From an uncultured Oscillospiraceae bacterium (GTDB lineage Bacteria > Bacillota > Clostridia > Oscillospirales > Oscillospiraceae): a DNA stretch of 64,000 nucleotides. Below, piece after piece: positions 24,827 to 60,490 of this stretch. Every line of letters begins with the position of its first letter. Positions within the stretch are counted from its first letter, which is position 1. A model generated the notes under the pieces. It was not told where the DNA came from and did no database searches. It worked only from the letters and a program-made list of their open reading frames with translations. The position numbers and the translations under genes were made by a program. The stretch is from NCBI GenBank assembly GCA_947626315.1, contig CANQRQ010000002.1, positions 1-64,000 of the forward strand, given 5' to 3'.

Positions 24827-24879
24827 CAGCCGGCTCCCGGGCGCTGCGCCTGAAAAACGGCAGAAGATAAGTCAAAGAG

Positions 24880-25342
24880 GCTGCAGCAAAACACTTTTTG
24901 CTGCAGCCCTTAATCTGCGAAAAGAGATGCTATTGAAGATAAACGAAAGTTTATAGGAGAAAAGATTACCTTCTCGGCTCTTCTCCTTCGGTCACCAGCG
25001 GGAACAGAGTTTGGTCTCTTGGTGGCTTTGTTCGCTTTCTTTGCCTTGCCGCAAAGAAAGCGAACCGAAAGAAAAGGCACCCGGGGAAGTTTCCCCGGGG
25101 CCCCTCTGGGAGCAGGGTACAGCAGACCCGTTCTCAGGTCGCCCTTAGTCTTTCTTGCAGGTTTACCCCGGTGCAGACACTGGCAGAAGTCGCTCCTGCG
25201 GTTGCACGCACATACCTACAAGGCTCGCCGGGCACTTGTTTCCTTATATAAACTTTCGTTTACCTCAGAAAAAATTTTGCCTTCCTTTCACACAAGAAGG
25301 GGCTGCAGCAAAATGCTACAGCTCCTTCTTGCCTATATTCAT
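24880..25342. repeat. MITE-like element (copy A) with imperfect terminal inverted repeats, each carrying a stem-loop
   Basis: Left end ggctgcagcaaaacactttttgctgcagcc...gataaacgaaagtttata; right end is an imperfect reverse complement (tatataaactttcgtttacc...ggggctgcagcaaaatgctacagctcc); internal hairpin gttcgctttctttgccttgccgcaaagaaagcgaac. Confidence 0.7.
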
Positions 25343-35869: not shown

Positions 35870-36058
35870 CAAAAACAGGCACATGCCCATTCATCGTGAG
35901 CGTGTGCAGGACAGACTCAGCATTCTGGCTGAACACCCAAAGGCGTATCACAGTGGCGGGACCGTGCGGGATTTGCACCCGGCTTTCCTGAATAATTGCC
36001 TGCCCCTTGGTCGGAGCGTATTCTGTTTTCCCGGAGAATTCACCCGAAACCGGGTGTG
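35870..36058 (-). ncRNA. Cobalamin riboswitch
   Basis: Minus strand GCCGGGTGCAAATCCCGCACGGTCCCGCCACTGTGATACGC matches the conserved B12-box core; located upstream of the BtuFCD-like operon. Confidence 0.93.
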
Positions 36059-43139: not shown

Positions 43140-43282
43140 GTGTTTCACCTCCGTGAGATGTAATCTGCGCCCAAAAAGAAAGCTCCGCGCATAAAGACGC
43201 GGAGGCACAAAAACAATCAAAAAATCATGTTGATGTCCTCGGCAGGATTTACGGCCTGAGCCACCTGCTGTCTTCGGAGCGC
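43140..43282 (-). ncRNA. Ribosomal protein L10 leader with attenuator hairpin
   Basis: Minus strand gaagacagcaggtggc...cctgccgaggac...GCCTCCGCGTCtttatGCGCGGAGctttcttttt upstream of rplJ; layout fits Firmicutes L10 leaders. Confidence 0.75.
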
Positions 43283-43288
43283 TCAATT

Positions 43289-43317
43289 AATATACTCCCG
43301 GAATGGCCTTTTGTCAA
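43289..43317 (-). promoter_or_regulatory. Sigma-A promoter of rplJL
   Basis: Minus strand TTGACA-aaaggccattccgggag(17)-TATATT. Confidence 0.75.
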
Positions 43318-60285: not shown

Positions 60286-60299
60286 GAGCAGGCAAAAAG

Positions 60300-60490
60300 G
60301 GCTGCAGCTTGTCATTTCGGCTTGCTGCAGCCCCTTTGCGCGTTGAAGAAAGGCAAGATCTTTTCCGAAGATAAACGAAAGTTTATCGCAGAAAAGACAC
60401 CTTTCTCATCTCTTCTCCTTCGGTCACCAACGGGAACTGAGTTTGGTCTCTTGGTGACTTTGTTCGCTTTCTTTGCCTTGCCGCAGCTCC
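60300..60490. repeat. Partial copy (B) of the 24880-25342 repeat element
   Basis: ggctgcagc...gctgcagcccc...agataaacgaaagtttatcgcagaaaagac...tctcttctccttcggtcaccaacgggaactgagtttggtctcttggtgactttgttcgctttctttgccttgccgca, near-identical over the shared core. Confidence 0.85.

What the first reader, a model, noticed from the sequence alone, without database searches (positions are those of the whole stretch)
24880..25342. MITE-like element whose terminal inverted repeats each contain a stem-loop
Both ends share ctgcag-rich stem-loop plus gataaacgaaagttta in opposite orientation (left 24880-24955, right about 25248-25342). The ~460-bp interior encodes no convincing protein and holds extra palindromes (gttcgctttctttgccttgccgcaaagaaagcgaac; ccccggggaaacttcccc-like). 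No transposase, so probably non-autonomous or a structured RNA repeat. It sits directly upstream of the HtrA-like gene and may influence it.
Basis: seen in the sequence. Interest (0 to 1): 0.68.

Follow-up and report, generated by a model that had tools for sequence, protein, structure and literature searches.

The report
Mobile DNA repeat replacing gene terminators
This stretch is one of about 29 copies of a non-coding, mobile-looking DNA repeat in an uncultured gut bacterium's genome; its two ends are hairpins that sit where neighbouring genes normally keep their transcription stop signals, so the repeat appears to swap its own stop signals for the host's.

Summary
Window 24876-25330 is one of ~29 copies in this genome. 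Anatomy: outer hairpin, ~25-nt spacer, inner TIR with TAAACGAAAGTTTA, structured interior, then the same inverted. Two other species of the genus carry relatives with the same ends and interior. There is no conserved reading frame, linked transposase or visible target-site duplication.

The new point is where the ends lie. Copies sit tail-to-tail between convergent genes (17/25 by automatic calls, about 20/25 after manual correction; 6/47 in the window). At 14 gene ends the element-free orthologue has an ordinary, different terminator where the element hairpin stands here. In 25 copies, no flank shows an intact element hairpin plus a clear native terminator. Some solo hairpins mark places where a relative has the element or another hairpin.

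Best explanation: an EFAR-like non-autonomous element that integrates at intrinsic terminators and replaces the host hairpin with its own. The interior hairpin covaries. The mobilising enzyme is unknown. The htrA promoter lies outside the element and is conserved without it.

The parts
24876..24911 (.). left outer hairpin (GGCTGCAGCAAAA/TTTTGCTGCAGCC), intrinsic-terminator-like, about 50 nt after the stop codon of the upstream gene
   Evidence: inverted repeat I6; -22.5 kcal/mol, z -5.9; terminator-like on the - strand; position matches element hairpins of other copies
24912..24936 (+). left spacer (type B end, AATCTGCGAAAAGAGATGCTATTGA)
   Evidence: conserved inside the hairpin in other copies while sequence outside the hairpin is not
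24937..24963 (+). inner terminal inverted repeat, left arm, with the motif TAAACGAAAGTTTA at 24940-24953
   Evidence: 27 nt, 85% complementary to 25239-25265; 54 genome hits, 0 control hits
24964..25238 (+). structured interior without conserved reading frame
   Evidence: 83-93% identical in most other copies; codon-position entropies without a coding pattern
25030..25065 (+). long interior hairpin GTTCGCTTTCTTTGC...GCAAAGAAAGCGAAC
   Evidence: 15 bp perfect; 8 of 15 pairs with changes on both sides, 97.4% of cells paired in 34 distinct sequences of 3 species
25080..25099 (+). G+C-rich interior hairpin CCCGGGG...CCCCGGG
   Evidence: invariant pairs (no covariation information) in 34 sequences
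25239..25265 (-). inner terminal inverted repeat, right arm (TAAACTTTCGTTTA at 25249-25262)
25266..25293 (-). right spacer (type-A-like when read on the - strand)
25294..25330 (.). right outer hairpin AAGAAGGGGCTGCAGC...GCTACAGCTCCTTCTT
   Evidence: -23.6 kcal/mol, z -5.2; outside it, at 25338, homology with the element-free relative begins
60298..60485 (+). second, left-half copy in the window: hairpin, spacer, TIR (60372-60385) and 117 nt of core, broken in the apex of the long hairpin

Best explanation
A non-autonomous, MITE-like element of one Oscillospiraceae genus whose two ends are intrinsic-terminator hairpins. It integrates at the terminators of host genes, mostly the shared space between convergent genes. 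The host stem-loop is lost and an element hairpin stands at each edge, so both neighbouring genes still end in a terminator. Deletion between the two end hairpins (palindromes, hence also direct repeats) can leave one solo hairpin as the new terminator. Shown: multiplicity, ends, position behind stop codons, either/or relation with native terminators, and solo hairpins at element sites of relatives. Inferred: that integration itself removes the host hairpin, and that the hairpins terminate transcription. Unknown: the mobilising enzyme, very likely acting in trans or lost.
For: ~29 copies here; 13 and 19 model hits in two other species; the 329-bp core found by DNA search in only one of 59 relatives. 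The end hairpin belongs to the element: type-A ends have an asymmetric loop and are inverted at the right side of L002 and L014, and the same end occurs in all three species. Sequence is conserved just inside and unrelated (A-rich) just outside the hairpin. Distance from stop codon to inner TIR is mostly 60-113 nt; contexts toward/toward 17/25 automatic, about 20 after correcting miscalls, against 6/47 (binomial 2.5e-10 for 17). At 14 gene ends the relative without the element has a different terminator at that place. Where the native hairpin is kept (L005L, homology runs through it; L006L) the element hairpin is missing; L024R is a native terminator fused to the inner half of an element hairpin. 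L014L: homology with G124 runs exactly to the hairpin stem. Solo hairpins L029 and L030 lie behind genes whose G018 orthologues carry the element; in L031 a hairpin is swapped with both flanks intact. Outer-hairpin pairs change together.
Against: No same-species empty site was available, so replacement at the moment of integration cannot be separated from later loss of the native terminator. No target-site duplication and no linked transposase. A few copies have no hairpin on one side (L009R, L013L, L016L, L018L). About five copies, including this one, are not between convergent genes. Predicted T-tracts are modest and no transcription data exist. L007L may keep a weak native hairpin beside the element's.
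Confidence: 0.66

Rival explanations
1. Ordinary MITE insertion into the harmless space between convergent genes; because the element carries terminators, the native ones became redundant and decayed or were deleted later.
For: Convergent enrichment is known for pneumococcal BOX, RUP, SPRITE and IS elements and explained there by tolerance (PMC3049150). Copies are 77-95% identical to the consensus, so there was time for decay.
Against: No clear flank shows a surviving native terminator beside an intact element hairpin; L024R is a precise native/element hairpin fusion; L031 shows hairpin-for-hairpin exchange with both flanks preserved.
Confidence: 0.22
2. A structured non-coding RNA gene or regulatory RNA family amplified in the genome, its terminal hairpins being its own terminators.
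For: Interior hairpin with covariation; strong fold (z -7.2).
Against: Only one weak promoter-like match in the region, not at the element start; no Rfam family at gathering threshold; interior modules swapped, nested or missing between copies; position tied to neighbouring genes' 3' ends. DNA palindrome correction can also create paired changes.
Confidence: 0.07
3. The outer hairpins are host terminators that merely flank a smaller element (inner TIR to inner TIR).
For: Some copies, and several G124 copies, start at the inner TIR next to a native terminator.
Against: Outer hairpins have near-identical sequence and loop next to unrelated genes, are inverted at the two ends, and are conserved in three species; relatives have different terminators there.
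Confidence: 0.05

Closest known systems
EFAR elements of Enterococcus faecalis (listed as enterococcal MITEs in PMC3733652; Efa-1, a 163-bp pair of adjacent stem-loops, in PMC2267715)
   Same: From memory of the abstract of Venditti et al. 2007, not readable here: modular palindromic elements whose empty sites are unrelated stem-loops, most of the target stem-loop being lost on integration. That is the same behaviour as inferred here.
   Different: No sequence relation was tested or is expected. Here the element is longer (~455 bp), with terminator hairpins at both outer ends, a long interior and solo-hairpin remnants.
SPRITE of Streptococcus pneumoniae (PMC3049150)
   Same: Interspersed repeat resembling an intrinsic terminator, strongly enriched between convergent genes and close to 3' ends of genes; possible co-option as terminator; no TSD found.
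   Different: SPRITE is one AT-rich hairpin with a long T-tract; here two separate hairpins bound a long GC-rich structured interior, and replacement of native terminators is visible by comparison.
BOX elements of S. pneumoniae
   Same: Modular, variable composition, structured, intergenic.
   Different: BOX modules are boxA/B/C; no end terminators, no known terminator replacement.
REP/BIME/REPIN with RAYT (TnpA_REP)
   Same: Inverted pairs of palindromes around a spacer, extragenic.
   Different: No intact RAYT-type (Y1_Tnp) gene found in G000, G018 or G124; elements are far longer.
YPAL of Yersinia
   Same: Targets span or adjoin dyad symmetries (PMC2229807).
   Different: 168 bp, with target-site duplications of 3-26 bp.

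Membership tests
MITE | many dispersed, non-coding copies | tested here: met
   ~29 loci; no coding signal
MITE | terminal inverted repeats | tested here: met
   inner TIR 24937-24963/25239-25265 and inverted outer hairpins
MITE | target-site duplication | tested here: not met
   no direct repeat seen outside hairpins or inner TIRs on inspection of 25 copies; no same-species empty site
MITE | parent IS/transposase with the same ends | tested here: not met
   all own-genome copies of the inner motif belong to element copies or solo ends; only one broken Y1 transposase in G000 and no IS110-type hit there; genome 97.75% complete, other families not searched
EFAR-like behaviour | empty sites are unrelated stem-loops, lost on integration | tested here: met
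   14 gene ends with different terminators in element-free relatives; cross-species, so indirect
EFAR | sequence homology with EFAR | not tested
   no EFAR sequence was at hand
SPRITE-like terminator repeat | terminator-like hairpin enriched at gene 3' ends | tested here: met
   17-20 of 25 convergent, hairpin just after stop codons
REP/REPIN | linked RAYT transposase | tested here: not met
Rfam structured RNA family | match above gathering threshold | tested here: not met
structured interior | base pairs kept by changes on both sides | tested here: met
   8 pairs, 76 cells, covariation score 0.255 against 0.106 shuffled and at most 0.095 slid

The most novel reading that the evidence does not exclude
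A mobile element that spreads by exchanging hairpins: its terminal palindromes recombine with host terminator palindromes (no dedicated transposase), and its loss leaves solo hairpins, so over time it rewrites which terminator sequences a genome uses, terminator by terminator, without harming the neighbouring genes.
Probability: 0.25. Interest if true: 0.72.

Novelty: new variant of a known kind. Interest (0 to 1): 0.5.

Why it matters
It would explain how a selfish repeat can multiply in a compact genome without breaking genes: it lands on terminators and supplies replacements at both ends. It suggests that repeated terminator sequences in a genome can be remnants of mobile elements, much as solo LTRs are. 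Element copies are also candidate joints for rearrangement: G124 joins flanks that lie at two different copies in G000. The prediction is directly testable with same-species strains and 3'-end RNA mapping.

Tried and rejected
Rfam at permissive threshold gave only sub-threshold chance hits. Coding interior: a long open frame exists in some copies but codon-position variation shows no coding signal and indels break frames. RAYT/IS200 as mobiliser: one fragment with a stop in G000, none in relatives. IS110 family: only a weak partial hit in G018. Plasmid or phage origin: no match. Hairpins as pre-existing host terminators: rejected because orthologous gene ends have other terminators and the hairpins are inverted and shared between species. 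Hairpins as target-site duplications containing a terminator: rejected because left and right hairpins of the same copy differ in loop and type-A loops are inverted. The EFAR paper is not in the held library.

Full report
WHAT IS THERE. The unit in the window runs from a hairpin at 24876-24911 to a hairpin at 25294-25330. Inside lie a short spacer, an inner terminal inverted repeat (24937-24963 and 25239-25265, each with TAAACGAAAGTTTA) and a ~275-bp interior with two strong hairpins. The fold is much better than shuffles (-192.5 against -140.5 +/- 7.2 kcal/mol). A search of the whole genome gave 25 near-complete copies plus four truncated or interrupted ones, among them the left half at 60298-60485. 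The inner motif occurs 54 times with up to one mismatch and never as the reversed control. Cores are 77-95% identical to their consensus and mostly 325-332 bp; a longer form of 385-388 bp carries an extra hairpin.

RELATIVES. Among 59 relatives one (G018, identical in contig lengths to the MAG CANRHH01, uncultured Oscillospiraceae bacterium Lapin-032 bin9) has diverged copies, and a further species of the genus (G124) was found by the motif. A covariance model of the interior finds 29 places here, 19 in G124, 13 in G018 and weak, partial matches (long hairpin plus CCCGGGG hairpin) in 21 of the other 99 genomes of the genus. The left end, hairpin GGGRCTGYAGCAAAACGA... plus spacer, is shared by G000, G018 and G124. 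No plasmid or phage record matches.

STRUCTURE. In 34 distinct sequences of three species the long interior hairpin keeps pairing in 97.4% of cells, with 8 of 15 pairs changed on both sides; the covariation score of the whole structure is 0.255 against 0.106 for shuffles and at most 0.095 when slid. L014 has arms of two different types, a broken intermediate. The outer hairpins also keep pairing while changing (G-C to A-T at the base of the stem). This supports selection on, or templated correction of, palindromes; it does not by itself prove an RNA function.

WHERE IT SITS. Reading outward from the inner TIR, the sequence is conserved through the spacer and the hairpin and then becomes unrelated and A-rich directly outside it. 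The stop codon of the neighbouring gene mostly lies 60-113 nt from the inner TIR. Automatic gene calling gives 17 of 25 copies with both neighbours pointing at the element; correcting miscalls (L019R, L023) by the orthologue comparison raises this to about 20 (my estimate, not a separate computation). In the window 6 of 47 neighbouring gene pairs are convergent. The copy in the finding is one of the exceptions: it lies between tandem genes, about 50 nt behind an oxidoreductase gene and ahead of the htrA promoter.

REPLACEMENT OF TERMINATORS. Flanking genes were looked up in G018 and G124. At 14 gene ends the orthologue without the element has an ordinary, different intrinsic terminator immediately behind its stop codon, where the G000 gene has the element hairpin (L002L, L005R, L007R, L008L, L009L, L011R, L014L, L019L, L019R, L021L, L021R, L022R, L023R, L025L; read by eye). 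The reverse also occurs: at L005L homology with G018 runs through the native terminator and the element hairpin is missing, and L006L looks the same. L024R is a native terminator fused to the inner half of an element hairpin; L006R has half a hairpin. At L014L homology with G124 ends exactly at the base of the hairpin stem. So each flank has an element hairpin, a native or other one, or occasionally none; only L007L might hold both.

SOLO HAIRPINS. Six further CTGCAG-type hairpins stand alone in G000. Two (L029, L030) lie behind genes whose G018 orthologues carry the element or a large part of it. At L031 both flanks match G018 and G124 copies of another repeat, and only the hairpin is exchanged. 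Deletion between the two end hairpins is the simplest reading (inference).

REARRANGEMENT. G124 has one copy whose left flank equals the left flank of G000 copy L011 and whose right flank equals the right flank of G000 copy L004, as expected if copies recombine; independent insertions plus rearrangement are not excluded.

MECHANISM AND LIMITS. I judge it most likely that integration happens at terminator stem-loops and consumes them, as I recall being reported for EFAR in E. faecalis (from memory; the held library only confirms that EFAR is classed as a MITE, PMC3733652, and that the Efa-1 family is a double hairpin, PMC2267715). SPRITE is the nearest readable precedent for terminator-like repeats at gene 3' ends (PMC3049150). 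The chief weakness is that the empty sites come from other species. The mobilising enzyme is unknown: no transposase carries these ends in the own genome, and two families were searched and not linked.

HTRA. The promoter region 25338-25450 matches G018, where no element is present; regulation of htrA by the element is therefore not indicated.

Noticed in passing
L026 (G000 C6:17300-18900) about 710-897; L152 (G124 C30) about 1215-1410: The same long palindromic module (GCGTCAGAACTTCATCAACAAGCCATGTGCGCGGCC...) is nested at the same place in the long interior hairpin in two species, suggesting a longer ancestral form or nested insertion.
   Followed up: partly
L154 and L190-L202 (G124): G124 copies carry extra palindromic cassettes in the 3' half (up to ~720 bp between TIRs); the family is mosaic.
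   Followed up: partly
L031 (G000 C3:66200-66800): Another repeat family (CGGCGGCAAAGCCGCCGAAAAGACGTCTCATGCGATTTTCTACGCGC) shared with G018 and G124 ends in a hairpin that was exchanged for a CTGTAG hairpin in G000.
   Followed up: partly
L194 (G124 C57) against L011 and L004 (G000): Flanks of two G000 copies are joined around one copy in G124: possible element-mediated rearrangement.
   Followed up: partly
window 43167-43295 (-) and 35874-36001 (-): Rfam matches above threshold: ribosomal protein L10 leader and cobalamin riboswitch.
   Followed up: no
L220 (G000 C6:108806-109069): Broken IS200/IS605-type transposase gene with an in-frame stop, not linked to the element.
   Followed up: no
L024 (G000 C12) and L197 (G124 C27): Both species have a copy behind the same, apparently RNase-P-RNA-like, locus, each next to a CACCCCCGGAG...CTCCGGGGGTG terminator.
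   Followed up: partly
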